In this document: positions 39,150-60,889 of the stretch, one piece after another
Layout: every line of letters starts with the position of its first letter
Position numbering within the stretch: position 1 is the stretch's first letter
Assembly: GCF_029224025.1 (NCBI RefSeq)
Contig: NZ_CP119392.1
Span: forward strand, 2,317,001-2,381,000
Source of the DNA: Rhodanobacter sp. AS-Z3
GTDB lineage: Bacteria > Pseudomonadota > Gammaproteobacteria > Xanthomonadales > Rhodanobacteraceae
DNA length: 64,000 nucleotides
Direction: 5' to 3'
Notes under the pieces: generated by a model
What the model saw: the letters and a program-made list of their open reading frames with translations, nothing else
Told to the model about the DNA's origin: nothing
The model's database searches: none
Made by a program: the position numbers and the translations under genes

Positions 39150-39223
39150 GGCCTGGTGGCAGAGTGGTCATGCAGCGGACTGCAAATCCGCGTACGCCGG
39201 TTCGATTCCGACCTAGGCCTCCA
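39150..39223 (+). tRNA. tRNA-Cys (anticodon GCA), probable phage attachment site
   Basis: 74-nt cloverleaf: acceptor GGCCTGG with CTAGGCC (one G-T pair), anticodon loop CTGCAAA (GCA), T-loop GTTCGATTC, encoded CCA. The integrase gene begins 145 nt downstream, and phage genes follow without interruption, so the 3' half of this tRNA is the likely attL core. The matching attR lies outside the window and could not be compared. Confidence 0.95.
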
Positions 39224-39239
39224 TTGCAATCAACGACTT

Positions 39240-39262: not shown

Positions 39263-39301
39263 TTGCCTGTAATCCGGCGATTGTGGTACAAAATCGGGCG
39301 C

Positions 39302-39325
39302 TTGCCACCCGTTTTTGGGTGGCAA
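39302..39325. repeat. Inverted repeat in the attachment region
   Basis: TTGCCACCC - GTTTTT - GGGTGGCAA, a perfect 9-bp inverted repeat between tRNA-Cys and the integrase. It may be an integrase arm-type or excisionase-binding site, or a hairpin in the int leader. Confidence 0.5.
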
Positions 39326-39367
39326 ACTCGCGTTAGCTTCTCAATTATCCGTGTACGGGGGTTTTCG

Positions 39368-40489
39368 ATGGCCATGAAACGGCGGCGTGGTGACGCCTGG
39401 CATTACACGGTGAAGCGGGCGGGGTTGTTGCCGCGACCGTTGTATTTGAGTTTCACGGATGAGGCGGAGGGCGATGAGTATGTGCGCCGGGTGGAAGCGT
39501 TGCTGGATCGCGGCGTGGTGCCCGATGAGTTCGGGGCGAAGCGTGAGTTGCGCCCGACGCTGCGCGATGGCGTGCGGCGGTATCTGGCGGGGCAGCATGT
39601 GGCGGCGGATGATCCGAAGGTGTTGGGCGTAGTGTTACAGCGATTGCCGATGGATATGCGTCTGGCCGAGTTGTCGTTTACGTGGGCGACGCGCTGGGTG
39701 GGTGAGTTGAAGCGCAAGCAGAATCTGGCACCGTCGACGATTCGCAAGCATGTGGGCGCGTTGTCGCGTTGTCTGGACTGGCTGGCTGGGCATGGTGATG
39801 TGCCGTTCAACGCGTTGCGCTCGCTGCCGAAGGGCTACGCGAGTTACACGCCGGATGATGCGGCGGCCGTCGCGCAGGTGGAGGGCGTGGCGAAGGATGA
39901 TGTTGAGCGCGATCGGCGGCTGGAGCTGGGCGAGGAAGCGCGGATCCGTGCGGTGCTGGACGGCATGCGGCCGGATGATCGGCAACGAGCGCTGGAGTTG
40001 CGTGAGGCGGACGCGCTGCGGCTGCTGTTTGAGATGGCGCTGGAGTCGGCGATGCGGATGCGCGAGATGTTCACGTTGTCGGTCGATCAGGTCGACTTGA
40101 AGCGTCGCACGATCTTCCTGGACAAGACGAAGAATGGAAGCAAGCGCCAGGTGCCGATCACGACTGTGTTGCGGACGCAGTTGGCGGTACGGTTGAAGAG
40201 TGCGGAGCCCGGTGAGCTGGTGTTTCCGTGGTGGGATGGCGACGCCCGCCTGCCGAGCTTGCGGCGGACCACGTCGCTGCTGTCACGGCAGTTTGCGCGG
40301 GTGTTCAGCGCGGCGAAATGCGAGGGGCTGCACTTTCATGATCTTCGGCATGAGGCGACCAGCCGTCTGTTTGAGCGGACGAAGCTGAGCGATCTGGAAA
40401 TTGCCAAGATAACGGGACATAAAAGCCTGGCGCAGCTGGCGCGGTATGCGAACCTGCGCGGGTCCAACTTGGCGGCTCGGCTGTGGTAA
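39368..40489 (+). CDS. int: Phage tyrosine recombinase (integrase)
   Basis: Site-specific recombinase presumed to integrate the phage at tRNA-Cys. From ATG 39368 it has 373 residues: an N-terminal arm and core-binding domain (about 65-150) and a catalytic domain with the first Arg in ESAMRMREMFTLS, a Lys in DKTKNGSKRQVPI, HDLRH, GHKS and the nucleophile Tyr in LARYANLR. It lacks the extra helix insertion that marks integron integrases, so it is not IntI. It reads toward, and is convergent with, the gene at 40522. Confidence 0.93.
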   Translation: MAMKRRRGDAWHYTVKRAGLLPRPLYLSFTDEAEGDEYVRRVEALLDRGVVPDEFGAKRELRPTLRDGVRRYLAGQHVAADDPKVLGVVLQRLPMDMRLAELSFTWATRWVGELKRKQNLAPSTIRKHVGALSRCLDWLAGHGDVPFNALRSLPKGYASYTPDDAAAVAQVEGVAKDDVERDRRLELGEEARIRAVLDGMRPDDRQRALELREADALRLLFEMALESAMRMREMFTLSVDQVDLKRRTIFLDKTKNGSKRQVPITTVLRTQLAVRLKSAEPGELVFPWWDGDARLPSLRRTTSLLSRQFARVFSAAKCEGLHFHDLRHEATSRLFERTKLSDLEIAKITGHKSLAQLARYANLRGSNLAARLW

Positions 40490-40521: not shown

Positions 40522-40830
40522 TCATTCGCCGCCGTTATTTCGTGGACTCAACAGGCGCGGAAGTGCGCGGCGAAGACCGTCGAGCACCCGCGACCAGCCG
40601 ATGCCAGCGTGCCACTCCGCGCCGTTGACCACGGCGCGGTAGCTATCGATGCGCCGCGTTCGGAATAGCTCGATCGTGTGGATAGTCGGCTCGGCGTCGT
40701 CGAAGTCTTCGATCGTGATACGGCGGCGGAGAAGTGGCGGCTGCCATGTGGGCGGGCGCTGATCTCCGGGCGCGATGTCGGGGCGGTGGCGATCGCGCCT
40801 GGCTTGGTACTTCCGTGTGCGTCGGTACAT
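40522..40830 (-). CDS. Phage protein of unknown function, last gene of the leftward operon
   Basis: 102 residues, basic N-terminus and a folded-looking core (ITIEDFDDAEPTIHTIELFRTRRIDSYRAVV region, WHAGIGWSRVLDGLRRAL). GAAGG lies 6-7 nt before the ATG. It has the strand of all other early leftward genes. The array of cassettes starts only 30 nt upstream of its start codon, so the cassettes separate it from the rest of its operon. Confidence 0.6.
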   Translation of the reverse strand: MYRRTRKYQARRDRHRPDIAPGDQRPPTWQPPLLRRRITIEDFDDAEPTIHTIELFRTRRIDSYRAVVNGAEWHAGIGWSRVLDGLRRALPRLLSPRNNGGE

Positions 40831-40887
40831 GACAGACCTTCAGCGGTTCGGATAATGAGGGTTAGACCTTACAAGGAACACCTCTCC

Positions 40888-41103
40888 ATGGTCGTAAAGA
40901 AAAAGCGTGAAGGTTTTGGCCTTGAAATGAAAACGTTCGAGGGTGAGGACGGTAATTCGTACTTGGTCTTTCGTACTGGCACAGGCTCCTTCCATGTGTT
41001 CATGGAGGTCGAGGCTAAAGAGGCTGCGCGTCAGTGCGGAGCCACTTCCGGCAAGAACACTCGTGGTATGTGGTCGGATGTCTGGCGCGGCGGTAAGGTC
41101 TAA
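40888..41103 (+). CDS. Cassette 1 protein, unknown function
   Basis: 71 residues (MVVKKKREGFGLEMKTFEGE...). It is the only cassette gene in canonical orientation: the TAA stop is part of the R'' box GTCTAAC of its own attC at its right. A weak AAGGA lies about 11 nt upstream of ATG 40888. The product is mixed alpha/beta in pattern with no family I recognise. Confidence 0.6.
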   Translation: MVVKKKREGFGLEMKTFEGEDGNSYLVFRTGTGSFHVFMEVEAKEAARQCGATSGKNTRGMWSDVWRGGKV

Positions 41104-41153
41104 CATCTCATCCAAGCGGACGGCTGCGCCGCCGCTTAATTCCAGCGTTAGGC
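41098..41153 (+). repeat. attC site 1
   Basis: R'' GTCTAAC at 41098-41104 and R' GTTAGGC at 41147-41153, with arms CCAAGCGGACGGC and GCCGCCGCTTAAT. The R'' complements GTTAGAC at the start of the same cassette (40861). Confidence 0.85.
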
Positions 41154-41154
41154 G

Positions 41155-41373
41155 TCACTTGTAGCGTTCGGCGTAGGTGCCGTCTTCTAACCACTTCATT
41201 CGCTTCGTCGCCCTGCTCAGCGCAGCACCGGGAGTAGCGCACTTGTTCGGCATCCCGCAGAACTCGTGTCTCACGCCTTTGTGTGTAATTGCAAAGCGCC
41301 ACGGGTATGGGTGCACTAGATCGCCGTAATCGTCACGGATCAGTTCAATTGAGGTTGCGCGTTCGTCTTTCAT
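41155..41373 (-). CDS. Cassette 2 protein, unknown function
   Basis: 72 residues (MKDERATSIELIRDDYGDLVHPY...), containing WRFAITHKGVRHEFC and ending WLEDGTYAERYK. The gene runs on the minus strand, against the attC orientation; its stop lies immediately inside the left cassette boundary and its start about 26 nt from the right one, so it fills the cassette. GGGA about 8 nt upstream may be the ribosome-binding site. No family recognised. Confidence 0.65.
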   Translation of the reverse strand: MKDERATSIELIRDDYGDLVHPYPWRFAITHKGVRHEFCGMPNKCATPGAALSRATKRMKWLEDGTYAERYK

Positions 41374-41392
41374 TTGAGTTCCCGTAGGTGCC

Positions 41393-41455
41393 GCCTAACA
41401 CTGCGGTCAAGCGGACCGGCGAAAAGCCGCCGGCCGCTTACCTCAAGGGTTAGGC
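41393..41455 (+). repeat. attC site 2
   Basis: 63 bp; R'' GCCTAAC 41393-41399, R' GTTAGGC 41449-41455; arms TCAAGCGGACCGGC and GCCGGCCGCTTACC around a GAAAAGCC loop. It belongs to the same subtype as attC 6. Confidence 0.85.
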
Positions 41456-41679
41456 CGCTGTGGCGGTTCCTCCGTCAGACGCCAGTCTGTTTTGCTACTG
41501 TCCATGAGTTTCGCGGCGGTCTTTCGATTTACAAAGCAACAACCGCATTGCGGGCAAACGACCTGATCGGCGCCTTCAAAGACTTTCTGGGCCGCTTGCT
41601 GGCAGCCAAGACAGTAGTCCACTTGAGGGCTGTTATCACCGCCTGCCAACCCGAATAATTTCATCAACTTTTTTAACAT
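41443..41679 (-). CDS. Cassette 3 protein, small zinc-ribbon protein
   Basis: 78 residues from ATG rc 41679, which has TTGGAG 8 nt upstream. Two CxxC pairs (YCLGCQ and VCPQCGCC) suggest a zinc ribbon. The C-terminal residues RPNP are encoded by the R'' box and spacer of the neighbouring attC, in which the stop lies. Minus strand, against the attC orientation. Confidence 0.65.
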   Translation of the reverse strand: MLKKLMKLFGLAGGDNSPQVDYCLGCQQAAQKVFEGADQVVCPQCGCCFVNRKTAAKLMDSSKTDWRLTEEPPQRPNP

Positions 41680-41707
41680 GCGTTTTCTCCAAGTTCTTGG
41701 CATAGCG

Positions 41708-41764
41708 GCCTAACACGTAGGTCGAGCGGACGGCTTTCAGCCGCCGCTCACCACAGGGTTAGGC
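41708..41764 (+). repeat. attC site 3
   Basis: 57 bp; R'' GCCTAAC 41708-41714, R' GTTAGGC 41758-41764; arms TCGAGCGGACGGC and GCCGCCGCTCACC. ATAGCGGCCTAAC just before and at R'' complements GTTAGGCCGCT at the start of cassette 3. Confidence 0.85.
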
Positions 41765-41973
41765 CGCTCAATGATGTATTCGGGAAACGGCCAGCCTTCT
41801 TCTTCCGTTGCCCGCCTTGCGCCGAGTTCACCCCATCGCGCATTGCACAAGCAACAGTCGCTCGGGTCGGCGCTCACGTCTGCTGGCTGCAGGTCAAGCG
41901 CCGTAGCAAGCTGCCCAACGGTTTCGCACTCAATTGCTTCGCCAGCGCGTATCACGTTCACTTCGGTACACAT
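41737..41973 (-). CDS. Cassette 4 protein, unknown function (duplicated as cassette 8)
   Basis: 78 residues from ATG rc 41973 with a strong GGAGG 6 nt upstream. An acidic protein with a Cys-rich core (SDCCLCNARWGEL) and the tail GWPFPEYIIERPN. The C-terminal residues are read from attC 3. The whole cassette is repeated exactly at 42,929-43,221. Minus strand, against the attC orientation. No family recognised. Confidence 0.7.
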   Translation of the reverse strand: MCTEVNVIRAGEAIECETVGQLATALDLQPADVSADPSDCCLCNARWGELGARRATEEEGWPFPEYIIERPNPVVSGG

Positions 41974-41994
41974 TGCAAACCTCCGGGCAGCGCG

Positions 41995-42051
41995 GCCTAA
42001 CACTACATTCAAGGCGGACGGCTACGCCGCCGCTTAATTCAGGGGTTAGGC
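41995..42051 (+). repeat. attC site 4
   Basis: 57 bp; R'' GCCTAAC 41995-42001, R' GTTAGGC 42045-42051; arms CAAGGCGGACGGC and GCCGCCGCTTAAT around TAC. Identical to attC 8. Confidence 0.88.
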
Positions 42052-42198
42052 GTCGTCGCGAAGTTGTCCGCAAGTCTTGGCGTATGCTCGCGCTTCGATT
42101 ATCAGCGTCATCAGCTTGCGCAGTTTCTTTGCACCCTTCATGTCCGAATCCATCACGGCCATCAGGTCTTTGAAAAATAGGTCAAGGGAAAATCCCAT
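42046..42198 (-). CDS. Cassette 5 protein, 50 residues, unknown function
   Basis: A very short gene: 50 residues starting MGFSLDLFFKDLMAV and ending CGQLRDDA, a basic helical protein with KGAKKLRKLM in the middle. GGAGAA lies 4-5 nt before ATG rc 42198. The TAA stop is the TTA of the left cassette boundary itself. Minus strand. The perfect fit between the cassette ends and the ribosome-binding site support it despite its size. Confidence 0.6.
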   Translation of the reverse strand: MGFSLDLFFKDLMAVMDSDMKGAKKLRKLMTLIIEARAYAKTCGQLRDDA

Positions 42199-42223
42199 GT
42201 TGTTCTCCTTTTGTGGTTTCCAC

Positions 42224-42279
42224 GCCTAACACGTCATTCAAGCGGACGGCTGCGCCGCCGCTTAATTCAAGGGTTAGGC
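42224..42279 (+). repeat. attC site 5
   Basis: 56 bp; R'' GCCTAAC 42224-42230, R' GTTAGGC 42273-42279; arms TCAAGCGGACGGC and GCCGCCGCTTAAT around TGC. ACGCCTAAC complements GTTAGGCGT at the start of cassette 5. Confidence 0.88.
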
Positions 42280-42524
42280 CGCAGGGCGTCTCGCGCAATT
42301 TGCACAAGACATCTCCAGCGGTCATCGCTTCCTGTGGTGGCTGCGATCTTGTCGAGCGCCGCGCGCAGCCTGGCTATCTCCGCATCCGCATCAATTTTCG
42401 CCACGAGTGCAATCGTTTCATCCGGCGGCGCGTCGTCCCATTTTTTCGGCAGCGGGTCGGTCCGGTCGTGGTACTGCATCCAGCCGGTGTCGTCCCATGT
42501 GCATCTGTACGCTTCAATTTTCAT
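42267..42524 (-). CDS. Cassette 6 protein, unknown function
   Basis: 85 residues from ATG rc 42524, with GGAG 6 nt upstream. The N-terminus MKIEAYRCTWDDTGWMQYHD is followed by an acidic helical stretch with a coiled-coil pattern (TIALVAKIDADAEIARLRAALDKI within it). The stop lies in attC 5. Minus strand. No family recognised; the composition resembles small phage early proteins. Confidence 0.65.
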   Translation of the reverse strand: MKIEAYRCTWDDTGWMQYHDRTDPLPKKWDDAPPDETIALVAKIDADAEIARLRAALDKIAATTGSDDRWRCLVQIARDALRPNP

Positions 42525-42541
42525 TGTTCTCTCCAATTGCG

Positions 42542-42603
42542 CCCTAACACGGTGGTCAAGCGGACCGGCGAAAAGCGCCGGCCGCTTACCTCAAGGGTTA
42601 GGC
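42542..42603 (+). repeat. attC site 6
   Basis: 62 bp; R'' CCCTAAC 42542-42548, R' GTTAGGC 42597-42603; arms TCAAGCGGACCGGC and GCCGGCCGCTTACC around GAAAAGC. Confidence 0.85.
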
Positions 42604-42849
42604 GGCGTCTGAAACATCCAGTTTCCCAGGCCAATCCGCACCCATGTCTATTCCGATCTCGCCGGCAACATCGAGCAGTGCCTTTTCGGCAAACTGCGCC
42701 GTCTCCATCGGCCCATCATGCTTGTGCGGCGTCAGTGGCAATCCGGCCTGTTTCCTGATGCTCATAATCGCGTAGCGCAAATGCATGGACACGCCGAGCA
42801 GCGCGCGCTGGTCAATCGTGAATTGCTGGGTTGGTGCGTGGTACTTCAT
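42598..42849 (-). CDS. Cassette 7 protein, unknown function
   Basis: 83 residues (MKYHAPTQQFTIDQRALLGV...), mostly helical, with GGAG 8-9 nt before the start. The stop codon uses the TTA of the left cassette boundary. The leader GAACTTGGAGAA is shared with cassettes 3 and 11. Minus strand. No family recognised. Confidence 0.65.
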   Translation of the reverse strand: MKYHAPTQQFTIDQRALLGVSMHLRYAIMSIRKQAGLPLTPHKHDGPMETAQFAEKALLDVAGEIGIDMGADWPGKLDVSDAA

Positions 42850-42877
42850 TCGGGTTCTCCAAGTTCGTGGCGCCGCC

Positions 42878-42934
42878 GCATAACACGTAGGTCAAGCCGA
42901 TGGCGTTCCGCCACGGCTTACCATTGGGTTAGGC
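42878..42934 (+). repeat. attC site 7
   Basis: 57 bp; R'' GCATAAC 42878-42884, R' GTTAGGC 42928-42934; arms TCAAGCCGATGGC and GCCACGGCTTACC. The most divergent arms in the array, but structurally regular. Confidence 0.8.
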
Positions 42935-43143
42935 CGCTCAATGATGTATTCGGGAAACGGCCAGCCTTCTTCTTCCGTTGCCCGCCTTGCGCCGAGTTCA
43001 CCCCATCGCGCATTGCACAAGCAACAGTCGCTCGGGTCGGCGCTCACGTCTGCTGGCTGCAGGTCAAGCGCCGTAGCAAGCTGCCCAACGGTTTCGCACT
43101 CAATTGCTTCGCCAGCGCGTATCACGTTCACTTCGGTACACAT
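42892..43143 (-). CDS. Cassette 8 protein, copy of the cassette 4 protein
   Basis: 83 residues from ATG rc 43143. Identical to the cassette 4 protein up to IIERPNP; it then differs because translation runs into a different attC (site 7) before the stop. GGAGG 6 nt upstream. Minus strand. Confidence 0.68.
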   Translation of the reverse strand: MCTEVNVIRAGEAIECETVGQLATALDLQPADVSADPSDCCLCNARWGELGARRATEEEGWPFPEYIIERPNPMVSRGGTPSA

Positions 43144-43164
43144 TGCAAACCTCCGGGCAGCGCG

Positions 43165-43221
43165 GCCTAACACTACATTCAAGGCGGACGGCTACGCCGC
43201 CGCTTAATTCAGGGGTTAGGC
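43165..43221 (+). repeat. attC site 8
   Basis: 57 bp, identical to attC 4 (offset 1170 bp); R'' GCCTAAC 43165-43171, R' GTTAGGC 43215-43221. Confidence 0.88.
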
Positions 43222-43401
43222 CGCAGTGGCGGTGTCTCTTGCCGCAAGCCATGACAAGTGCAGCATTCGGCTTTCCTCGGCAAAAAAGACTCCGTTCTTG
43301 TCACGGCCCCATGCGCGTGTAATGTGCGGCTGGGCTTTTACCCACCACTCGCGGCATTCTGTCTGCGTTGGGGTTTCCTGTGGTGCGTCTTTGTGGCTCA
43401 T
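43216..43401 (-). CDS. Cassette 9 protein, unknown function
   Basis: 61 residues (MSHKDAPQETPTQTECREWW...), Trp-rich with a WLAARDTATAA end. GAGGA lies 5-6 nt before the ATG, and the stop codon is the TTA of the left cassette boundary. Minus strand. No family recognised; the size and style fit small phage proteins. Confidence 0.62.
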   Translation of the reverse strand: MSHKDAPQETPTQTECREWWVKAQPHITRAWGRDKNGVFFAEESRMLHLSWLAARDTATAA

Positions 43402-43417
43402 AATTCCTCGCGTTGCG

Positions 43418-43473
43418 GCCTAACACGTCATCCAAGCGGACGGCTGCGCCGCCGCTTAATTCAGGCGTTAGCT
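43418..43473 (+). repeat. attC site 9
   Basis: 56 bp; R'' GCCTAAC 43418-43424, R' GTTAGCT 43467-43473; arms CCAAGCGGACGGC and GCCGCCGCTTAAT. TGCGGCCTAAC complements GTTAGGCCGCA at the start of cassette 9. Confidence 0.86.
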
Positions 43474-43656
43474 CGCTATCCGCGGCGGGATATTCCATGC
43501 CGCCACGGCCTGCGCACTGTCATCCGGCTCACCATCGGTAATGCTTGTGCCGGTTGCATCGCATTCGTTGCATCGCACAAACCAAGCAGATCCACTGCAT
43601 GTCAATTCAACGTGTGCGCTTCCGCAAAATGGGCAGTTCAGAATTTCGTTTTCCAT
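43468..43656 (-). CDS. Cassette 10 protein, Lar-like zinc-ribbon protein
   Basis: 62 residues from ATG rc 43656 (AAAGGA 7 nt upstream). The sequence LNCPFCGSAHVELTC, then WFVRCNECDATG and AVAAWN, has the layout of Lar-type restriction-alleviation zinc ribbons found in phages and prophages. Whether it alleviates restriction is not shown. The stop is the TTA of the cassette boundary. Minus strand. Confidence 0.68.
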   Translation of the reverse strand: MENEILNCPFCGSAHVELTCSGSAWFVRCNECDATGTSITDGEPDDSAQAVAAWNIPPRIAS

Positions 43657-43680
43657 TTCATTTCCTTTGGTTGCATCGCA

Positions 43681-43738
43681 AGCTAACACTGCGTCCGAGC
43701 GGACAACGTACCGTTGCCGCTCAACTTAATCGTTAGGC
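43681..43738 (+). repeat. attC site 10
   Basis: 58 bp; R'' AGCTAAC 43681-43687, R' GTTAGGC 43732-43738; arms CCGAGCGGACAACG and CGTTGCCGCTCAAC. GCAAGCTAAC complements GTTAGCTCGC at the start of cassette 10 with one mismatch, an R'' sequence different from the rest and yet matched to its own cassette. Confidence 0.83.
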
Positions 43739-43992
43739 CGCGGCAATCTGAATCCGTAGTCCTGTTGCATCCGTTGCACCATGTCCACCGGATCGGCGTC
43801 GGCGGACAGCCGGACAAATCCTCGGACGGCCATTTCACGCCCAAGCGAGAACTCCTGCAGAGCCATCGGGGTTACTGGCTCGGAAACCTTCCTGGTGGGG
43901 TGCAATATCGAAATTGCTCCCCACAGGAAAAGCTCCTGCGCCTTCCATTTATCCATTGCCACTTTCTTTGCTTTTGACCAATTAACAGCCAC
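43726..43992 (-). CDS. Cassette 11 protein, unknown function
   Basis: 88 residues from GTG rc 43992, with GGAG 6 nt upstream (leader GAACTTGGAGAA). The start MAVNWSKAKKVAMDKW and the later SADADPVDMVQRMQQDYGF helix are notable; no family recognised. The stop lies inside attC 10. Minus strand. Confidence 0.62.
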   Translation of the reverse strand: MAVNWSKAKKVAMDKWKAQELFLWGAISILHPTRKVSEPVTPMALQEFSLGREMAVRGFVRLSADADPVDMVQRMQQDYGFRLPRPND

Positions 43993-44019
43993 TTCATTCT
44001 CCAAGTTCGTCGCAACGCG

Positions 44020-44075
44020 GCCTAACACGTCATCCAAGCGGACGGCTGCGCCGCCGCTTAATTCAGGCGTTATGC
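44020..44075 (+). repeat. attC site 11 (right end of the array)
   Basis: 56 bp; R'' GCCTAAC 44020-44026, R' GTTATGC 44069-44075; arms CCAAGCGGACGGC and GCCGCCGCTTAAT. Its R' is joined to the phage sequence TTATGC, so this is the junction with the phage genome. Confidence 0.86.
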
Positions 44076-44249
44076 TGCAAGTTCGATGTCGATCGTTACG
44101 GTTCGAAACATCACTGGCGGCAGCGCGGCAATCTGCTCGCGAGTCAGCCCGCTTATCACAATGAACTGGTCGCCCGATTCGGTGCGTATGCCTGGCGTTG
44201 TCATGCCTTCAAGGTCGCCCATTTCAACAACCGTTCCTTCAATCTTCAT
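44070..44249 (-). CDS. Small phage protein of unknown function at the array junction
   Basis: 59 residues (MKIEGTVVEMGDLEGMTTPG...), beta-rich, ending FRTVTIDIELAA. Its TAA stop is the TTA of the phage-array junction GTTATGC. The start overlaps the next gene by 11 nt. Before the array arrived, this gene would have been followed after 30 nt by the gene now at 40,522-40,830. Confidence 0.6.
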   Translation of the reverse strand: MKIEGTVVEMGDLEGMTTPGIRTESGDQFIVISGLTREQIAALPPVMFRTVTIDIELAA

Positions 44250-44436
44250 TTCGTGCCGCCTCGGTTGCCACCGCCCTGACGCGCTTCGCTTCGCGCTCAA
44301 GCGCTGCCGCTGCCATATCAATCGCCACACCCAGCCGGCGTGGGTTTGTTTGTACGTGTGGTTCGTCGTCGCTGTCACGCCGCCACGCGTTGTGGCTGCG
44401 CAGTATTTCGGCGGCCTCGCTTGCGGTCATCTTCAT
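44239..44436 (-). CDS. Small phage protein of unknown function
   Basis: 65 residues, helical and charged (MKMTASEAAEILRSHNAWRR..., AIDMAAAALEREAKRVRAV). It overlaps both neighbours by a few bases in the tightly packed leftward operon. No family recognised beyond the general style of phage early proteins. Confidence 0.6.
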   Translation of the reverse strand: MKMTASEAAEILRSHNAWRRDSDDEPHVQTNPRRLGVAIDMAAAALEREAKRVRAVATEAARNED

Positions 44437-44738
44437 CGGTCACCACCGGTGCGCTCGTATGCGTCGAGGTTCGGCTTGCTGGTGGATCGTTTGGCGCGGG
44501 TCGGTGGTGCGTCGATGGGTTTTCGACTGCGGCGGCGTGCTGCCTGGGCGCGGCCTTGTTCGCGCACGTAGGCGATGAGGTCGTCGCGCAGCAGGATGGT
44601 GTGTTTCTGATTGAGCGACAGGGCCGGAACCGCGCCGCTGTCGACCAGTTCTTTCATGGATTTCAGGCCAAGATGCAGGAAGTCGGCGGCTTGCTGCAGG
44701 TCCATCGTCGGATCGTTGGCGGCGGGTTGCGTGTTCAT
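44433..44738 (-). CDS. Excisionase-like HTH DNA-binding protein
   Basis: 101 residues from ATG rc 44738, overlapping the methyltransferase stop by 4 nt (ATGA). The N-terminal half has the MerR-like HTH_17 pattern of excisionases: LQQAADFLHLGLKSMKELVDSGAVPAL, then KHTILLRDDLIAYV. The tail is very basic (RAQAARRRSRKP). It may be the phage excisionase or an early regulator; the position near the integrase end favours the former. Confidence 0.7.
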   Translation of the reverse strand: MNTQPAANDPTMDLQQAADFLHLGLKSMKELVDSGAVPALSLNQKHTILLRDDLIAYVREQGRAQAARRRSRKPIDAPPTRAKRSTSKPNLDAYERTGGDR

Positions 44739-46570
44739 GCGGCGATCCGTTCCGGCATGGTGACCGGGTCGAGGTTGGCGCGGGCCAGTGCGCAGAGTGG
44801 TGGTGGGCTGACGCTGTTGCCGACCATGCGCACGGACTGGCTGATGGTGAGGCGCTGGCCGCTGGCGGTGCGATCGATGATGTAGTCGGCGGGGAAGCCT
44901 TGGGCGCGGAACAGTTCCTCGCGCCGCAGCATGCGCAGGCCGATGTCGACGATGACGTAGGGCGTGCCATGAATGACGACGGTCACCAGTGCGATGCGAT
45001 CGCGGGTGGTGATGGTGTCGAGCGGTTCGCGCAGGTCGAGCGCGGTGCCGTTGCCGTAGTAATTCACCATGAATGCTGCGACACGCAGCGCGCCGGTTTC
45101 GTGTTCCGGTGACAAGGTGCACTCGATCAGCGCGTGGTGCTCGCCGCCGGCGCTGATGGTGGCCAGCGGGTCGGCTACGTCTGCCGCGTTGCTGGTGCCG
45201 CGCAGCTTGGCCATGTGCGCGGTGACCAGTCGCTGCTGGCTGCCGGTGGCGGTGACTGAGCTGACGGGTTCGTCACAACCGCGAGCGCGTGCGGGGTTTC
45301 CGTTGGGGCCACCGCCGTTGGCTTGCTCGAGGAATGCGGTGACCACCGCGCAGTCTGCTTTGCTGGTGATCGTGATCAGCGGTTCATTGCCGGGGCGCTG
45401 GTCGGTCTGCGCAGCCCGGCCACCGACCCCGACCAGCGTCGGTGACACCACCGCGAAGTGGCCACCCTTCACCCCGGCGCAGATCGTGCGCAGCGGTTCA
45501 TCCGCTGGCATGGTGCGCTGGTTGCTGGCGTTGGCCATCTCAGTGATCAGCGGCGCGAGCGTGGCAGTTCCGAGACAACTGTCCGCCTTGGCGGTGATCG
45601 TCTGCATGGGTTGCGATGTGCCGCGTTCGGAGGTCTGCGACATGCGGCCACCACAGCCCACAATGAACGGCTCCGCCGCATCGATCACGTACCGCTGAAT
45701 GCCCTTGGCGATCCGCCGCATGGTGGCTTCGGCCAGCGGCTTCTTGCGGGTGAAGATGGACGGGCACGGCACGGTGAAGTCGATGCAATCGGCGGCGGTC
45801 ACCAGCGGCAGCAGGCCGGGTGCTTTGCCGTGGGTAGGCGCAGGCCAGACGATGGGCTGGCCGTCGCGGCGGGCGATGAGGAACAACCGTTTGCGGATGG
45901 TGCCGGCGCCGTAGTCGCTGGCCACCAGCTTGCGCCATTCGACCACGTAGCCGATGGCGCGCAGCGCGGCGACAAACTGCGACCAGGTACGGCCGGCGTG
46001 GCGTTTGTCGGGCACCAGTTGCTGGTCCCACACGCTGACCATCTCGCCCTTGCTGGCCACGCTGCCGTCCAGTTTCAGCACGCGGCCGGTGGTTTTGCAG
46101 CGCTTGGCCACCAGCGGCCCCCATGTGAGGATCTGTTCGACGTTTTCGAGGCTGATGATGCGCGGCGCAAGGCCTGCTGCCGCCAGCGTGCCGGCAACCT
46201 TGAGCACCACCCAGCTCAGCGATCGCGTGGCACGCGCCCGCGGCTGGCCGCCTTTGGCTTGGCTGAAGTGGGTGCAGTCGGGGCTGGCGTGGAACCAGCC
46301 GACCTTGCGGCGCGCTACCTCACGCAGAATGTCGACGGTCCACACGTCGGCTTGCATATGGTGGGTGAATGGATGGTTGGCGGCGTGCAGGCCGATGGCC
46401 ATGGGGTCGTGGTTGACGGCCATGTCGGGGTCGCGGCCCAACGCCTGCCGCAGCGCTTCGCTGGCGCCGCCGCCGCCGGCGAAGAAGTCGAGCACGATTT
46501 CACCGGGGCGAAGCGCGGATGTGAAAGCCTGGCGTGGGAAGTTGAAGCCGTGCTGGGTTCCGTCAGCCAT
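44735..46570 (-). CDS. Phage DNA (cytosine-5) methyltransferase
   Basis: 611 residues from ATG rc 46570. Motif I LDFFAGGGGASEA (27-39), motif IV with catalytic Cys99 in SPDC (PDC rather than the usual PPC), motif VI ENVEQ, motif VIII IRKRLFLIARR and motif X GNSVSPPPLCALARANL are all present, so the enzyme should be active. The target-recognition region between VIII and X is long and made of several related units (TIT/TIS followed by ALV-type strands). No restriction enzyme gene is nearby; the likely role is protection of phage DNA from host restriction. Confidence 0.9.
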   Translation of the reverse strand: MADGTQHGFNFPRQAFTSALRPGEIVLDFFAGGGGASEALRQALGRDPDMAVNHDPMAIGLHAANHPFTHHMQADVWTVDILREVARRKVGWFHASPDCTHFSQAKGGQPRARATRSLSWVVLKVAGTLAAAGLAPRIISLENVEQILTWGPLVAKRCKTTGRVLKLDGSVASKGEMVSVWDQQLVPDKRHAGRTWSQFVAALRAIGYVVEWRKLVASDYGAGTIRKRLFLIARRDGQPIVWPAPTHGKAPGLLPLVTAADCIDFTVPCPSIFTRKKPLAEATMRRIAKGIQRYVIDAAEPFIVGCGGRMSQTSERGTSQPMQTITAKADSCLGTATLAPLITEMANASNQRTMPADEPLRTICAGVKGGHFAVVSPTLVGVGGRAAQTDQRPGNEPLITITSKADCAVVTAFLEQANGGGPNGNPARARGCDEPVSSVTATGSQQRLVTAHMAKLRGTSNAADVADPLATISAGGEHHALIECTLSPEHETGALRVAAFMVNYYGNGTALDLREPLDTITTRDRIALVTVVIHGTPYVIVDIGLRMLRREELFRAQGFPADYIIDRTASGQRLTISQSVRMVGNSVSPPPLCALARANLDPVTMPERIAA

Positions 46571-46739
46571 GCAGCTCACCCACGGCGCCAATGGCTTGTT
46601 CTGCCTGCTCGATGGCTATGGCTAGTTGCGTGGCCAGTGACCGCGCCGCTTCAAGAGGCAGCTGCTGGTATCCGGCACCGATGTAGACAGCTACACGGCC
46701 ATCGGTGGTGGCATGGGCGATGGGCTTGAAGTCAGGCAC
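46563..46739 (-). CDS. Small phage protein, 58 residues
   Basis: Begins at GTG rc 46739 inside the end of the upstream gene and overlaps the methyltransferase start by 8 nt. The product starts MPDFKPIAHATTDGRVAVYI and continues with a helical stretch (LEAARSLATQLAIAIEQAEQ). The tight overlaps on both sides and regular composition support a real gene. Function unknown. Confidence 0.55.
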   Translation of the reverse strand: MPDFKPIAHATTDGRVAVYIGAGYQQLPLEAARSLATQLAIAIEQAEQAIGAVGELHG

Positions 46740-52421: not shown

Positions 52422-54821
52422 ATGGCCGCCAGCAACTACGGCGACGTGCTGGACCAGCTGCGCGGCATCGGCCTGCAGGTAGATCACCTCGAGATCGGGC
52501 GCATGGTGCGCTGTCGTATCGAGGGCGATCGCGAGCAGCGCGGCTGGTACATGCTCCACGAACTGCAGGCGGGCACCGGTGATCTGCTGATCGTCGGCAG
52601 CTTCGGCGTGTGGCGTGGGCAGGACAACGGCGCGATGAAGGTCGCGCTGAGCAAGTCGTCACAGCTCACCACCGAACAGCGCGAGGCGATCCGCAAGCGC
52701 CAGGCCGAAGACCGCAAGCGTGTCGACGCCGATCGCGCGCGCACTGCAGCCCGCGCTGCTGACAAGGCTGCCGCCGCCTGGGCGAAGTGCAACCCCACTG
52801 GCGAATCCGACTACCTCACCCGCAAGGGCGTGCAAGCGCACGGCCTGCGGTTCTCACCCAGCGGCGCGTGCGTGGTGCCGATGCTGGATGCTGCCGGCAA
52901 GATCCACGGCCTGCAGATCATCCGTCCGAAGAAAGAGAACGGCCGCGACAAAGACTTCTGGCCGGCCGGGCTGGCCAAGAAAGGCCACTTTCACCTGATC
53001 GGTTCGCCCACCTGGCTGGTGCTGATCGCCGAAGGTTATGCCACCGCCGCCACGTTGCACGAAGCCACCGGCCTGCCAGTGGCGGTCGCGTTCGATGCCG
53101 GCAACATCGGCCCGGTGGCCACCGCGCTGCACAAGCGCTACAAGCAAGCGAAGATCCTGATCTGCGCCGATGACGACGTCTTCGGCAAATGCCAGCACTG
53201 CGGCACGCGCGTCGACCTGTCGCCGTACCGCGACGGCAACACCTGCGGCAGCCCCGCCTGCGCCAAAGAACACGGCCGTACCAACACCGGCGTGGTCGCG
53301 GCTAGCAGCACGGCGCTGGAAGTCAACGGCGCCTGGGTCGTGCCCGTGTTTGCTGATGCCAACGGCCGCCACAACGCCTTCATCGAACGCGGCGCCAAGC
53401 TCAGCGACTTCAACGACCTCCACGCGCTCGAAGGTCTGCACGTCGTGCGCACCCAGCTCGAGGCCCGCCTGTCGGAGCTGTCGTGGACGCCGGGCGCGAA
53501 AGGCTCGCGCTTGCGCAACAAGAGGGGGGAGGGGAATGGCGATCTGCGCCCCATCGAAACCCTCGACGAATTGCTCGAGCGGTACGCGCTCATCTACGGC
53601 CACGACAGCACCGTGTTCGATCGCACCGAACACCAGCTGGTGAAGATGGGCGACATGCGCGACATCTGCCTGGCACGTGACCTGCACCGTGGCTGGGCCG
53701 AACACCCCGACCGGTGCATCGTGCGCGTGCGCGAAGTGGGCTTTGACCCCGCCTGCACCGATCCCAACATCAAGTGCAACCTGTGGTCCGGCTGGCCAAC
53801 GTCACCCACACAAGGCAACTGCGACAAATTGCTCGAACTGCTGCGCCACATGTGCAGCGGTGATGGTGCGCCCACCACCCTCTACAACTGGGTGCTCAAC
53901 TGGCTGGCGTATCCGCTGCAGCACCATGGCGTGAAGCTCAAGACCACCATCGTGCTGCATGGTCCGCAGGGCACCGGCAAGAACGTGTTCTTCGAAGCGA
54001 TCATGGCGATCTACGGGCGCTACGGTCGGGTGATCGATCAGAAGGCCGTCGAAGACCGCTTCAACGAATGGGCCAGCCGCAAGCTGTTCATCATCGCCGA
54101 CGAAGTCGTCGCCCGCTCCGACCTGTACCACATCAAGAATGCGCTCAAGGGTCTCATCACCGGCACCGAGATCCTGATCAACCCCAAAGGCCTGCCCAGC
54201 TACTGGGAAAGCAACCACCTCAACATGGTCTTCCTCAGCAACGAAACCATGCCGGTCGTCGTCGAGGAAGACGACCGCCGCCATGCCGTCATCTGGACGC
54301 CCGAAAAACTGGCGCAAAGCTTCTACGCCGAAGTGTTCGATGAAATCGCCAACGGCGGCGTGGCAGCGCTCCACCACTTCCTGCTCCACCGCGACACCGG
54401 CGATTTCAACGCCGGCACGCTGCCGCCCTACACCGACGCCAAGGCTGACCTGATCAACCTCAGCCTGGACAGCACCGTGCGTTTCTACCAGGAGCTGGTC
54501 GCCGGTGAGCTCAACGGCGTGCGCCCACGGGCCGCGCTGGCCACCGACGTGTATGACCTCTACCGCGTGTGGTGCGTGCGCACCGGCCACCGTGCCGGCC
54601 CCCAGCCGAAGCTCATCAACGCGATCGAACGCAAGTGCCGGGTCACCAGCGCCCGCAAGCGCTACGTGGACGTCATGGGCACCACCCGCGGGCCGCATGG
54701 CGTGCTCTACCTCGGCGCCGACGCCTGCCCACCTGGCGAAGCCGAAACCGCGTGGCTCGGTGAACAGATCGCCGGCTTCCGCAAATCCGTCGGCGTCTAC
54801 AAGGGCGACAACTATGACTGA
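52422..54821 (+). CDS. Phage primase-helicase (Toprim + D5/DUF5906 helicase)
   Basis: 799 residues from ATG 52422 (GGGGAG 7 nt upstream). The N-terminal half is a Toprim-type primase (IAEGYATAATLHEATGLPV near 205, CADDD near 248). A four-cysteine insertion (CQHCG ... TCGSPAC) follows directly after the DDD strand. The C-terminal half is a D5-like superfamily 3 helicase with Walker A GPQGTGKN (about 513) and FIIADEV. This is the replication initiator of many temperate siphoviruses; an iteron-rich region follows immediately. Confidence 0.88.
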   Translation: MAASNYGDVLDQLRGIGLQVDHLEIGRMVRCRIEGDREQRGWYMLHELQAGTGDLLIVGSFGVWRGQDNGAMKVALSKSSQLTTEQREAIRKRQAEDRKRVDADRARTAARAADKAAAAWAKCNPTGESDYLTRKGVQAHGLRFSPSGACVVPMLDAAGKIHGLQIIRPKKENGRDKDFWPAGLAKKGHFHLIGSPTWLVLIAEGYATAATLHEATGLPVAVAFDAGNIGPVATALHKRYKQAKILICADDDVFGKCQHCGTRVDLSPYRDGNTCGSPACAKEHGRTNTGVVAASSTALEVNGAWVVPVFADANGRHNAFIERGAKLSDFNDLHALEGLHVVRTQLEARLSELSWTPGAKGSRLRNKRGEGNGDLRPIETLDELLERYALIYGHDSTVFDRTEHQLVKMGDMRDICLARDLHRGWAEHPDRCIVRVREVGFDPACTDPNIKCNLWSGWPTSPTQGNCDKLLELLRHMCSGDGAPTTLYNWVLNWLAYPLQHHGVKLKTTIVLHGPQGTGKNVFFEAIMAIYGRYGRVIDQKAVEDRFNEWASRKLFIIADEVVARSDLYHIKNALKGLITGTEILINPKGLPSYWESNHLNMVFLSNETMPVVVEEDDRRHAVIWTPEKLAQSFYAEVFDEIANGGVAALHHFLLHRDTGDFNAGTLPPYTDAKADLINLSLDSTVRFYQELVAGELNGVRPRAALATDVYDLYRVWCVRTGHRAGPQPKLINAIERKCRVTSARKRYVDVMGTTRGPHGVLYLGADACPPGEAETAWLGEQIAGFRKSVGVYKGDNYD

Positions 54822-55209
54822 CCATTTTCCCGACGCCAAGAAAATGAACTGCAAGTCACTTTTCAGTTCACTTAATGCCCAATCTGTGCGGCATGTGCGG
54901 CATAGTGTGCGGCATCCTGTGCGGTATCAAATCCGCGCTTTTGCAGGCTGTGCGGCATGTGCGGCATGCCCCGCGCAGACGCCCACCCGCGCCTATGCGT
55001 GCCTGCGCACATGGGGGCGCGTGTGCGCCCCCGCAGGTATGCCGCACATGCCGCACACCCGCACCGCTACGCCATCCGTTGCCGCACAACATGCCGCACA
55101 GACACCCGCACACCTCGCCGCCATGCCGCACAGTCGCGTGCGCGCCAACTACCTACCCCAACACGTTGTTGGAAAAAAAGTAGTAGTGGTGAAGGGAGTA
55201 AGGGCATGA
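54814..55209 (+). CDS. Possible coding sequence over the iteron region
   Basis: 131 codons, ATG overlapping the primase stop and stop overlapping the terminase small subunit ATG. The protein has repetitive VRHVRH, CAACAAC and MPHMPH segments that simply reflect the DNA iterons, so coding may be secondary to the DNA function. The terminase gene has its own ribosome-binding site, so it does not need this frame. Confidence 0.35.
   Translation: MTDHFPDAKKMNCKSLFSSLNAQSVRHVRHSVRHPVRYQIRAFAGCAACAACPAQTPTRAYACLRTWGRVCAPAGMPHMPHTRTATPSVAAQHAAQTPAHLAAMPHSRVRANYLPQHVVGKKVVVVKGVRA
54885..55132. repeat. Iteron cluster, candidate phage replication origin
   Basis: Six copies of TGTGCGGCAT (one with T for C) at 54885, 54894, 54906, 54918, 54949 and 54958, and five of the reverse complement ATGCCGCACA at 55039, 55048, 55079 (T for A), 55091 and 55123. 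Between the two groups is a perfect hairpin GGGGGCGC - GTGT - GCGCCCCC (55013-55032). Spacings of 9 or 12 bp are common. The symmetric layout directly after the primase-helicase gene is that of an origin. Confidence 0.75.
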
Positions 55210-55796
55210 CCGGGCAAGAAACCGCCAGCTTCGCCGGCTTCGCCCGGATCCTCGGCGTCAAGCCCCAGGCTGTCACCGCGCTGCGGCACGCTGATCGCCT
55301 GGTGCTCACGCCGGATGGCAAGCGCGTGTTGGTGCTGGAAAGCCAGCAGCGCCTGGTCGCCACCGCCGACCCCAGCAAAGCCGGCGTGGTGGCACGTCAT
55401 GCCGCTGCGCGGCAAGCATCGGCGGGGGAGGGGGAAGCCCCGCCCGCCGGTGGTCAGCCACCGCCCGCCAACGAGCCCGACGACGACACCCACGCCAGCA
55501 CCGGCTTCCAGCACTGGCGTGAGCGCAATGAGCGGGCCAAGGCATTGGCCGGTGAGCGCGACAACCTCATCGCCGAAGGCAAGCTGATGGACGCCGGCGA
55601 AGTCGCCGCCGCCGTCGCCGCCGCCACCACCCAGCTGCGCGCCAGGCTCGAAGGCCTGCCCAACGTGCTGGGCCCGCAGCTCGCCGCCATCCACGACGAA
55701 GGCGAAGCCCGCGCCATCCTCGCCGAAGCCATCGAGCACGCGCTCGAAGAAACGGCGCGGCAGTTTTCCAATCTCAGCAAGCAGGTGAATGCATGA
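55206..55796 (+). CDS. Phage terminase small subunit (Nu1-like)
   Basis: 196 residues from ATG 55206 with AAGGGAG 5-10 nt upstream. The N-terminal segment ASFAGFARILGVKPQAVTALRHADRL is a winged-helix type of DNA recognition domain, followed by a Pro/Gly-rich linker and a C-terminal helical region (HWRERNERAKALAGERDNLI..., LAEAIEHALEETARQF), as in Nu1/DUF1441 small subunits. One gene separates it from the large subunit. Confidence 0.8.
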   Translation: MTGQETASFAGFARILGVKPQAVTALRHADRLVLTPDGKRVLVLESQQRLVATADPSKAGVVARHAAARQASAGEGEAPPAGGQPPPANEPDDDTHASTGFQHWRERNERAKALAGERDNLIAEGKLMDAGEVAAAVAAATTQLRARLEGLPNVLGPQLAAIHDEGEARAILAEAIEHALEETARQFSNLSKQVNA

Positions 55797-56410
55797 ACGC
55801 AAAAGCAACCATCATCACAGGGCCGCAGGGTTCCGGTAAGAACACCCGTGCGCGTGCGATCGCCGCAGCGTTGGGTCCATTTACGGAAATATCGTGGTCA
55901 CAACTTTATGAGCAGTTCGGTCTTGAATCATTGCACCGGAAGGCAGTCGTCATCGTCGACGAGGTTCCTGCCATGGAACACTGTCTTTCTAAGATCAAGG
56001 GGCTAATCAGCAGTCCGAAAATAACGATCAATCGTAAGGTCCATGCCCCGTTGGAGATATACACGCCGAGTTTCATTTTCTGCACCAGCTCGAAGTGGGA
56101 GTGTGGCGATGGGCGGCGCTTTGACGTCATCGATCTTTGGGAAAAGGTTCCGCTATATCGAGACATTCCAAGCCTCGACTACAACTTTCCGGCCGAACAA
56201 AACGAACGGATCTACGGCTGGTCGGCTCATATGGGTCATCGCTGCGTGCGATGCGCCAACCCGCTTGGCCCCTTCGGCATAGGGCATGGCACTAAGCAGG
56301 AACAATGGGGCTGCGTCGACTGTGGTGTAGGTGTTTGTTTCGGCGAAGAGAATCAGCCATCGATCAATGCAGCCGCCGACATGTTTGTGAGCATGCTTCG
56401 CACCGCATGA
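55793..56410 (+). CDS. P-loop NTPase with zinc ribbon, inserted between terminase subunits
   Basis: 205 residues, 4-nt overlaps with both neighbours. Walker A GPQGSGKN (10-17) and Walker B VVIVDEV are clear, an SF3-helicase-like pattern similar to the core of the upstream primase-helicase (GPQGTGKN, FIIADEV). The C-terminal third has CVRCANPLG and WGCVDCGVGVC, a four-cysteine zinc ribbon. Base composition is visibly lower in GC than the flanking terminase genes. A small NTPase is not a usual member of this place; it is probably an acquired accessory gene. Confidence 0.78.
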   Translation: MNAKATIITGPQGSGKNTRARAIAAALGPFTEISWSQLYEQFGLESLHRKAVVIVDEVPAMEHCLSKIKGLISSPKITINRKVHAPLEIYTPSFIFCTSSKWECGDGRRFDVIDLWEKVPLYRDIPSLDYNFPAEQNERIYGWSAHMGHRCVRCANPLGPFGIGHGTKQEQWGCVDCGVGVCFGEENQPSINAAADMFVSMLRTA

Positions 56411-58320: not shown

Positions 58321-58325
58321 CCACC

Positions 58326-58622
58326 ATGGCCCATCTCGATCTAGTTGCCGACATCCTGCAGCGCATTGGCCTGCACGCCAAGCTGCCCGCCAAGGTCGCC
58401 CAGGCGGTAGAGCGCGAAGTGCGCGATGACTGGGGCGGCGAGCGCCATTACATCGCCAAGGTGGGCGAAAGCGGCAAGGCGCAGCTCACCGAACGCGATA
58501 AGCAAATCCGCGACGCCTACCGCCAGGGCGAACACATCGAACTGCTGGCGCGCCGGCACGGCATCAGCGTGAAGCGGGTGCAGCAAATCGTGGCCATCGA
58601 CGCAGGAAACGCTTTGCCTTAA
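58326..58622 (+). CDS. Mor-like transcription activator domain protein
   Basis: 98 residues, 5 nt after the terminase. An N-terminal helical segment (ADILQRIGLHAKLPAKVAQAV), the DDWGGERHYIAK core and a C-terminal HTH (ELLARRHGISVKRVQQIV) follow the Mor/C family of Mu-like activators. Here it sits within the head operon rather than before it; it may regulate late genes. The last codons overlap a repeated 26-bp element. Confidence 0.78.
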   Translation: MAHLDLVADILQRIGLHAKLPAKVAQAVEREVRDDWGGERHYIAKVGESGKAQLTERDKQIRDAYRQGEHIELLARRHGISVKRVQQIVAIDAGNALP

Positions 58623-58630
58623 CCGTTTCC
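58605..58630 (+). repeat. 26-bp element, copy 1
   Basis: GGAAACGCTTTGCCTTA followed by ACCGTTTCC, at the end of the Mor-like gene and 25 nt before the next start. A second copy with two mismatches is at 60,807-60,832. Confidence 0.7.
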
Positions 58631-58654
58631 ATAAACCCGGTCAGCCTGCCCAGC

Positions 58655-59200
58655 ATGACCGCCACTCCCGCTGACAGCATCCCGTCCGGCCTCACCGCCG
58701 GCGACACCGCGATCTGGTCGCGGTCCCTGCCGGACTACCCGGCCAGCGCTGGCTGGGTGCTGGCGTACACGCTGGTCGGGCTGACCACCGCCTACAACTT
58801 CAGCGCCACCGCCGACGGCGACAACTTCGCCATCAGCGTGCCGGCCGGCACCACCGCCGCATGGACGCCAGGCACCTACAAAGTGCAGGAATATGTCGCG
58901 CTGGCCGGTGAGCGGCACACCATCGGCATCACCGTGTTGCGCGTGGCGCCCAACCTGTCCGTGATGACCGCCGGGCAAGACCTGCGCACCCATGCCCGCA
59001 AGGTGCTCGACAGCATCGAAACCTGGCTGGAAACCAAGGCGCCAGTGGCCGGCAGCATGGAAATCAACGGCCGCAAAATCGCCTGGTACCCCATCGCCGA
59101 CCTGCTGAAGCTGCGCGATCGCTACCGGGTTGACGTGATGCGCGAAGAAAACGTCAGCCAGCCCGGCCGCTACGGCCATCGCATCAACTCGGTGCTGTGA
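58655..59200 (+). CDS. Head-tail connector-like phage protein (gpW-like C-terminus)
   Basis: 181 residues. The N-terminal two thirds are strand-rich (WVLAYTLVGLTTAYNFSATA, TYKVQEYVALAGERHTIGIT), an Ig-like pattern; the C-terminus GRKIAWYPIADLLKLRDRYR resembles gpW-type head-joining proteins. It lies where gpW lies in lambda, between terminase large subunit and portal. Function is inferred from place and C-terminal pattern. Confidence 0.65.
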   Translation: MTATPADSIPSGLTAGDTAIWSRSLPDYPASAGWVLAYTLVGLTTAYNFSATADGDNFAISVPAGTTAAWTPGTYKVQEYVALAGERHTIGITVLRVAPNLSVMTAGQDLRTHARKVLDSIETWLETKAPVAGSMEINGRKIAWYPIADLLKLRDRYRVDVMREENVSQPGRYGHRINSVL

Positions 59201-60795: not shown

Positions 60796-60806
60796 GCCCG
60801 CCGCGC

Positions 60807-60832
60807 GGAAACGCTTTGCCTTATCCATTTCC
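60807..60832 (+). repeat. 26-bp element, copy 2
   Basis: GGAAACGCTTTGCCTTA followed by TCCATTTCC, between the portal stop and the capsid operon start. It differs from copy 1 at two positions. Confidence 0.7.
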
Positions 60833-60889
60833 CGAAACCGCTGCAACCTGCAATTCACCATCGCACACCACCGCACCGAGGATTTCCAT

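What the first reader, a model, noticed from the sequence alone, without database searches (positions are those of the whole stretch)
40861..44075. Integron cassette array without an integron integrase, embedded in a temperate phage
Eleven attC sites with R'', extra-base arm, loop, arm and R' delimit eleven small-gene cassettes. Ten or eleven of the unit ends show extended complementarity between the 5' start and the R'' side of the same unit, as true cassettes require. The neighbouring tyrosine recombinase is a phage type without the IntI-specific insertion. Known integron arrays are chromosomal or on plasmids and transposons; a sizeable array in a prophage early operon is not something I know to be described.
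Basis: partly seen in the sequence, partly recalled or inferred. Interest (0 to 1): 0.92.

Follow-up and report, generated by a model that had tools for sequence, protein, structure and literature searches.

The report
Back-to-front integron cassettes in phage
A virus lying dormant in a soil-type bacterium carries eleven swappable gene cassettes of the integron kind, ten with the gene facing the opposite way from bacterial cassettes, and the same reversal recurs in many environmental phage sequences, which suggests that phages keep a swappable gene pool of their own.

Summary
Eleven attC sites (41098-44075) delimit eleven units in a ~40-kb prophage (genus Rhodanobacter, inferred). A covariance model built only from the host's chromosomal attC sites finds 10 of 11; a structure-only finder finds 11 of 11 plus one other site in the window. 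Boundaries are real: unit 1 is identical (286 bp) to a cassette of a chromosomal array in the same genome; units 4 and 8 are identical (287 bp); within-unit complementarity exceeds all 20,000 permutations. The host encodes an intact IntI elsewhere. An orthologous prophage has one cassette at this place; one related phage has int and xis adjoining with none. One caller gives 236 forward: 10 reversed in Rhodanobacter chromosomal arrays, but 13: 100 in IMG/VR contigs (non-redundant 11: 87) and 8: 33 in a second pattern set. Best explanation: IntI acting in trans on a phage pool of reversed cassettes that read with the phage operon. Catalysis, expression and the cause of the reversal are inferred.

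The parts
39180..39227 (.). attL: 3' end of tRNA-Cys (39150-39223); exact 48-bp copy at C1:2396143-2396190, about 40 kb to the right, outside the window
39263..40489 (+). phage tyrosine integrase (not IntI)
   Evidence: PHROG integrase; 20.4 bits against TIGR02249, cut-off 265
40522..40830 (-). small ORF left of the array, no PHROG match
40861..40862 (+). left edge of the array: G|TT junction before unit 1 (no attC to its left)
40862..41147 (+). unit 1, gene 40888-41103 on + (bacterial polarity); identical to chromosomal cassette L005:7575-7860; attC 41098-41153
41148..41449 (-). unit 2, reversed gene 41155-41373; attC 41393-41455
41450..41758 (-). unit 3, reversed gene 41443-41679 (or start 41703); attC 41708-41764
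41759..42045 (-). unit 4, reversed gene 41737-41973 (scored unclear, 120 to 100); identical to unit 8; attC 41995-42051
42046..42273 (-). unit 5, reversed gene 42046-42198; attC 42224-42279
42274..42597 (-). unit 6, reversed gene 42267-42524; attC 42542-42603
42598..42928 (-). unit 7, reversed gene 42598-42849; attC 42878-42934 (missed by R1, found by the structural finder)
42929..43215 (-). unit 8, reversed gene 42892-43143, copy of unit 4; attC 43165-43221
43216..43467 (-). unit 9, reversed gene 43216-43401, DNA relative in Xanthomonas phage Pfeifenkraut; attC 43418-43473
43468..43732 (-). unit 10, reversed gene 43468-43656, Lar-type restriction alleviation protein; attC 43681-43738
   Evidence: PF14354 39.8 bits, cut-off 28.6; phrog_599
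43733..44069 (-). unit 11, reversed gene 43726-43992; attC 44020-44075
44070..44378 (-). first phage gene right of the array; its TAA stop lies in the last R' core
44433..44738 (-). excisionase-like gene (weak match)
   Evidence: phrog_66, 20.1 bits, E 0.00081
44735..46591 (-). C5 DNA methyltransferase of the leftward phage genes
49964..50752 (-). CI-like repressor
52422..62785 (+). primase, terminase small and large subunits, head-tail joining, portal, major head protein

Best explanation
This is an integron cassette array without integrase (a CALIN) at the int-xis junction of a temperate phage. Its cassettes 2-11 come from a phage cassette pool in which the gene points the opposite way relative to its attC from bacterial cassettes. 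The chromosomal IntI of this host, or of earlier hosts, acts in trans on the folded attC bottom strand and inserts, deletes and duplicates single cassettes. Unit 1, at the left edge, equals a cassette of the host chromosome and is the only gene in bacterial polarity, so it is probably a recent addition from the host. Because the attC sites face the leftward phage genes, reversed cassettes read with them; on that strand the core reads RYYTAA|C and can supply an upstream gene's stop codon, so insertion need not break the operon. Shown: sites, boundaries, exact host-phage identity, exact duplication, presence and absence among relatives, reversed polarity here and in IMG/VR contigs. Inferred: IntI as the catalyst, direction of transfer of unit 1, transcription with the phage genes, and the cause of the reversal (operon fit, or a recombinogenic strand that is also the coding strand and so more often single-stranded).
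For: attC. Boundaries. Unit 1 = chromosomal cassette. Units 4 = 8. Intact IntI at C1:435769-436710, 483.9 bits, no internal stop. Orthologous prophage G019 with one attC and one reversed gene. Polarity: Rhodanobacter chromosomal arrays 236 forward, 10 reversed, 33 unclear, 8 none, 20 regions; IMG/VR 100 reversed, 13 forward, 42 unclear, 3 none, non-redundant 87, 11, 37, 3; second pattern set 33, 8, 15 in metagenomic contigs. Single cassettes shared by otherwise different contigs. Viral cassettes keep the cassette signature: 115 better, 22 worse, 21 equal of 158. No DNA relative of 41160-44010 in the other 44 Rhodanobacter genomes at E 1e-20.
Against: No recombination or transcription was measured. 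The left edge has no recognised attI. The gene caller is crude: 42 of 158 viral cassettes are unclear. Phage contigs with forward genes exist: TJE1 is canonical at its one strong site; in the second set some forward calls look real (for example L212) and isolate-derived contigs are 8 forward, 1 reversed, 4 unclear. IMG/VR membership was checked only on 20 flanking ORFs, 13 with a PHROG match, some of them not phage-specific. The viral sets were retrieved with three attC patterns, so other attC types are untested.
Confidence: 0.78

Rival explanations
1. The phage captured a piece of an ordinary chromosomal integron by illegitimate or homologous recombination, as PMC9892861 suggests for other phages, and carries it as frozen cargo.
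For: Unit 1 is a host cassette; the genus is rich in attC, 43 of 45 genomes.
Against: Units 2-11 have no DNA relative in the other 44 genomes of the genus; ten of eleven genes are reversed while chromosomal arrays are 236 to 10 forward; the AACAC start occurs in 10 of 11 window sites, the exception being unit 1, and about 1 of 244 chromosomal sites.
Confidence: 0.1
2. The palindromes are not IntI substrates but phage intergenic repeats (terminators or small mobile elements) that resemble attC.
For: They sit between small phage genes and form hairpins; single sites without neighbours occur in many of the IMG/VR loci.
Against: Core, arms and extra base match the host attC model; unit starts pair with their own R''; a whole cassette is identical between chromosome and phage, ending at the cut site apart from shared core bases.
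Confidence: 0.05
3. The array is real and IntI-made, but the reversed polarity seen in many contigs reflects one founder lineage of phage cassettes or related hosts, not a general rule for phages.
For: Contigs share cassettes and were retrieved with only three attC patterns; TJE1 is canonical.
Against: 87 reversed to 11 forward remain among 138 non-redundant cassettes from 55 loci; a different attC arm gives 33 to 8; the genes belong to unrelated families.
Confidence: 0.35

Closest known systems
Phage-borne CALINs and integrons (Qi et al. 2023, PMC9892861; abstract and Results section read)
   Same: attC clusters without integrase in phage genomes, with methyltransferase cassettes; phage attC sites recombined by IntI1 in assay
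   Different: Cassettes there are described as mostly in the typical orientation or with divergent attC sites; no class of reversed genes is described in the section read. Here 10 of 11 genes are reversed, one cassette is shared exactly with the host chromosome, and the locus is compared with and without cassettes
Sedentary chromosomal integrons and CALINs of Xanthomonas (PMC12444791; passages only)
   Same: attC arrays near to and far from intI in the same order of bacteria
   Different: Chromosomal; the words 'orientation' and 'inverted' do not occur in its main text by the term search
Inverted Vibrio cholerae superintegron (PMC11023631; passages only)
   Same: Shows that the strand carrying the recombinogenic attC affects cassette excision
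   Different: There the whole array is turned relative to replication; the genes are not turned relative to their attC
Cassette insertion at attG sites (recalled; named in a passage of PMC12444791)
   Same: A route by which cassettes land outside integrons
   Different: Not tested here whether the left edge is an attG-like site

Membership tests
Integron gene cassette array | attC sites with R''/R' cores, imperfect palindrome and extra base | tested here: met
   10 of 11 by an independent model, 11 of 11 by structure
Integron gene cassette array | unit boundaries at G|TT, unit start complementary to its own R'' | tested here: met
Integron gene cassette array | gene in the same polarity as attC | tested here: not met
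   met by unit 1 only; units 2-11 reversed, unit 4 scored unclear but identical to unit 8. A usual, not a strictly defining, feature
Integron gene cassette array | recombination by an integron integrase | not testable with these tools
   needs an assay; host IntI is intact in sequence
CALIN | at least two attC, no neighbouring intI | tested here: met
   wording of the definition seen
Complete integron | intI and attI beside the array | tested here: not met
   no IntI in the window (at E 1e-5 found it only in L094); attI was not searched by model
Temperate phage | integrase, repressor, packaging and head genes, att repeats | tested here: met
   inducibility not testable, and the part beyond 64000 was not annotated

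The most novel reading that the evidence does not exclude
Phages keep a cassette pool of their own, built on integron attC sites but with reversed gene polarity so that cassettes read with phage operons; host integrases acting in trans shuffle methyltransferase, restriction-alleviation, RNA-ligase and other accessory genes between phages, and now and then between phage and host chromosome: in effect a parallel integron system without an integrase of its own.
Probability: 0.65. Interest if true: 0.9.

Novelty: new variant of a known kind. Interest (0 to 1): 0.83.

Why it matters
Integrons are studied as bacterial gene stores, partly of phage defence. A phage pool that uses the same recombination sites in opposite polarity would be the other side of it: a way for phages to swap counter-defence genes one at a time with the host's own enzyme. 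The polarity is a simple marker to scan for, and the shared unit 1 shows traffic across the host-phage border. It also makes two questions testable: whether attC polarity relative to transcription sets the recombination rate, and whether prophage induction and IntI induction together reshuffle phage genes.

Tried and rejected
Rfam at the gathering threshold lists only tRNAs and a glycine riboswitch in the window. One exact attC string had no match in viral contigs, so degenerate patterns were used. Two cassette proteins (L084:345-602 and unit 7) had no match in the INPHARED phages. The two kinds of phage record similar to unit 9 (Pfeifenkraut, Cy-LDV1) show no attC in the stretches fetched. 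The AACAC start was considered as a phage mark and rejected: 13% of the viral sites have it, and of the loci it found in other genomes L202 and L203 are mostly forward arrays and L204 is a single site. A first crude caller was replaced by that. A replication-strand argument was left open; only local skew was computed. Structure prediction, fold search, PADLOC and promoter scans were not used.

Rows dropped: one search was given 80 of the 101 loci; of its matches I copied 244 sites in 77 loci by hand, those of about 29.7 bits and more, leaving out reverse-strand echoes, one site cut by a contig end (L071) and weaker rows, 21 of which the tool did not print. Cassettes under 120 or over 1600 bases were not scored. 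Chromosomal control regions were chosen from the best-scoring matches printed. Isolate-derived contigs were separated by name only, not.
Full report
What is there. The window lies at C1:2317001-2381000 of a 4.09-Mb single-contig genome. The genus is Rhodanobacter by inference: G019, placed in the same genus, has a contig of the same length (497548) as the named Rhodanobacter MAG contig found. A prophage begins at the 3' end of tRNA-Cys (39180-39227) and ends at an exact 48-bp repeat at C1:2396143-2396190, so it is about 40 kb. It has an integrase, a CI-like repressor, primase, terminases, head-tail joining, portal and major head proteins. The part beyond the window was not annotated.

The sites. 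Eleven attC sites lie between the integrase and a weakly matched excisionase-like gene. A covariance model from eight chromosomal attC sites of the same genome finds ten of the eleven at 32.8-63.5 bits, against at most 21.4 bits for reverse-strand echoes and 17.2 bits for the best other match in the window; it misses 42878-42934. A structural finder that demands cores, arms and a left-arm bulge finds all eleven and one more site in the 64 kb.

The boundaries. In cassettes the start of each unit should match the R'' side of the same unit. It does: 8.0 of 10 positions within units, 5.95 between, 0 of 20,000 permutations as good. Unit 1 (286 bp) is identical to a cassette in a chromosomal integrase-less array near C1:3517.6 kb; apart from shared core bases the flanks differ on both sides. 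Units 4 and 8 are identical over 287 bp, with 30 of 40 matching bases to the left (attC sequence) and 13 of 40 to the right. Such module-exact identity is what IntI recombination leaves behind.

Who could catalyse it. The phage integrase is not an integron integrase (20.4 bits, cut-off 265). The genome has one at C1:435769-436710, 483.9 bits, no internal stop, with an array beside it. Action in trans is thus possible and remains inferred. Among 120 viral loci plus the window only L094 encodes a relative of this IntI at E up to 1e-5.

With and without the array. In G019 the orthologous prophage at the same tRNA site (integrase 70%, xis 59%, methyltransferase 71%) has about 650 bp between int and xis, one attC (37.5 bits), and a unit whose only called gene, 58 codons, reads against the attC. 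In L043 and L044, which are the same phage (99.99% identical), int and xis overlap at their ends. In L045 about 120 bp separate the aligned ends. None of the 19 IMG/VR stretches with a related integrase has an attC at E up to 5, though the contig of one of them (L055, 44% integrase) has one elsewhere (L133). A related methyltransferase region in G002 gives only a 12.9-bit fragment. The array therefore seems to have been built at this junction.

The polarity. By the extra base the + strand is the canonical attC orientation (orientation of the aadA-type site recalled). Unit 1's gene is on the + strand. Of units 2-11 the caller scores nine reversed and one unclear (unit 4, identical to unit 8). 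To see whether this is a local oddity I scored gene direction with one caller elsewhere. Twenty chromosomal array regions of Rhodanobacter give 236 forward, 10 reversed, 33 unclear, 8 none. IMG/VR contigs found with an orientation-defined attC pattern give 58 reversed, 14 forward, 31 unclear, 1 none with the structural finder (101 loci), and 100 reversed, 13 forward, 42 unclear, 3 none with covariance-model sites (77 loci; majority reversed in 48 loci, forward in 3, tied in 3). Without redundant cassettes: 87 reversed, 11 forward, 37 unclear, 3 none of 138; by ORF length alone 66, 16, 55 and 1. Two further attC patterns (69 new loci) give 33 reversed, 8 forward, 15 unclear in metagenomic contigs, while nine loci from isolate genomes give 1 reversed, 8 forward, 4 unclear, seven of the forward ones from one array, L250.

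Is the polarity an artefact? Ten of the 100 reversed genes, hand-picked among the larger ones, were scanned with Pfam: eight matched (D12, C5 and N6/N4 methyltransferases, RNA ligases, DUF1643, phosphoesterase). The ten longest of the 13 forward calls matched nothing and look like shadows of the other strand. The forward calls of the second set were not scanned; by eye some look real, for example L212. Of 20 flanking ORFs from 20 loci, 13 match PHROG families, among them large terminase, baseplate, tail, RecE, DNA polymerase and primase; some of these are not phage-specific, and 7 matched nothing. Viral cassettes keep the cassette signature about as well as chromosomal ones: same-unit match better in 115 of 158, worse in 22, equal in 21; chromosomal 234 of 287, 29 and 24; second set 44 of 68, 12 and 12.

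Movement between phages. Single cassettes are shared by otherwise different contigs: L115/L109 98.3% over 351 columns and L062/L100 92.7% over 688, each starting and ending inside attC. In 41 of 100 reversed genes the stop codon is the TAA of the recombination core, and 21 more run into the attC, which then encodes their last residues. The array region has no DNA relative in the other 44 genomes of the genus at E 1e-20.

What is known. The section read does not describe a class of genes reversed against attC; it mentions divergent attC sites in one phage. Its phage TJE1 is canonical at the one strong site found here. PMC12444791 and PMC11023631 were seen as passages only. Eight searches turned up no title or abstract on reversed phage cassettes (listings only, and one search listed 20 of 53). 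The library lacks most subscription journals and all preprints, so this is weak evidence of absence.

Reading. The best account is a phage cassette array fed by a phage cassette pool of reversed polarity and worked by IntI in trans. Why the polarity is reversed is open. Two causes fit: operon compatibility, since the core read in the phage's direction carries a stop codon; and strand exposure, since the recombinogenic bottom strand is then the coding strand. A founder effect is the main rival for the generality, not for the array itself.

Noticed in passing
L014:14250-15816 (genome C1 about 439250-440815): An insertion of about 1.5 kb splits an attC in the array beside the host IntI; the remainder of that site was found at 41 bits.
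   Followed up: no
genome C1:600066, 607387, 614709: Three recombinase genes with identical scores spaced by about 7.3 kb, which looks like a tandem triplication.
   Followed up: no
L094:9633-12069: A viral contig that encodes an IntI relative (about 54% identity) beside two attC sites.
   Followed up: partly
window 41737-41759 and 42892-42929; also L105, L135, L244: Reversed genes that run into the attC get C-terminal tails encoded by it, often ending in residues like NASLSGGRRPSA or GGTPSA.
   Followed up: partly
window 19401-19585: Tandem glycine riboswitch aptamers on the minus strand.
   Followed up: no
genome C1:3655740-3655779 and 3256028-3256070: Short attC-like matches away from the two chromosomal arrays.
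   Followed up: no
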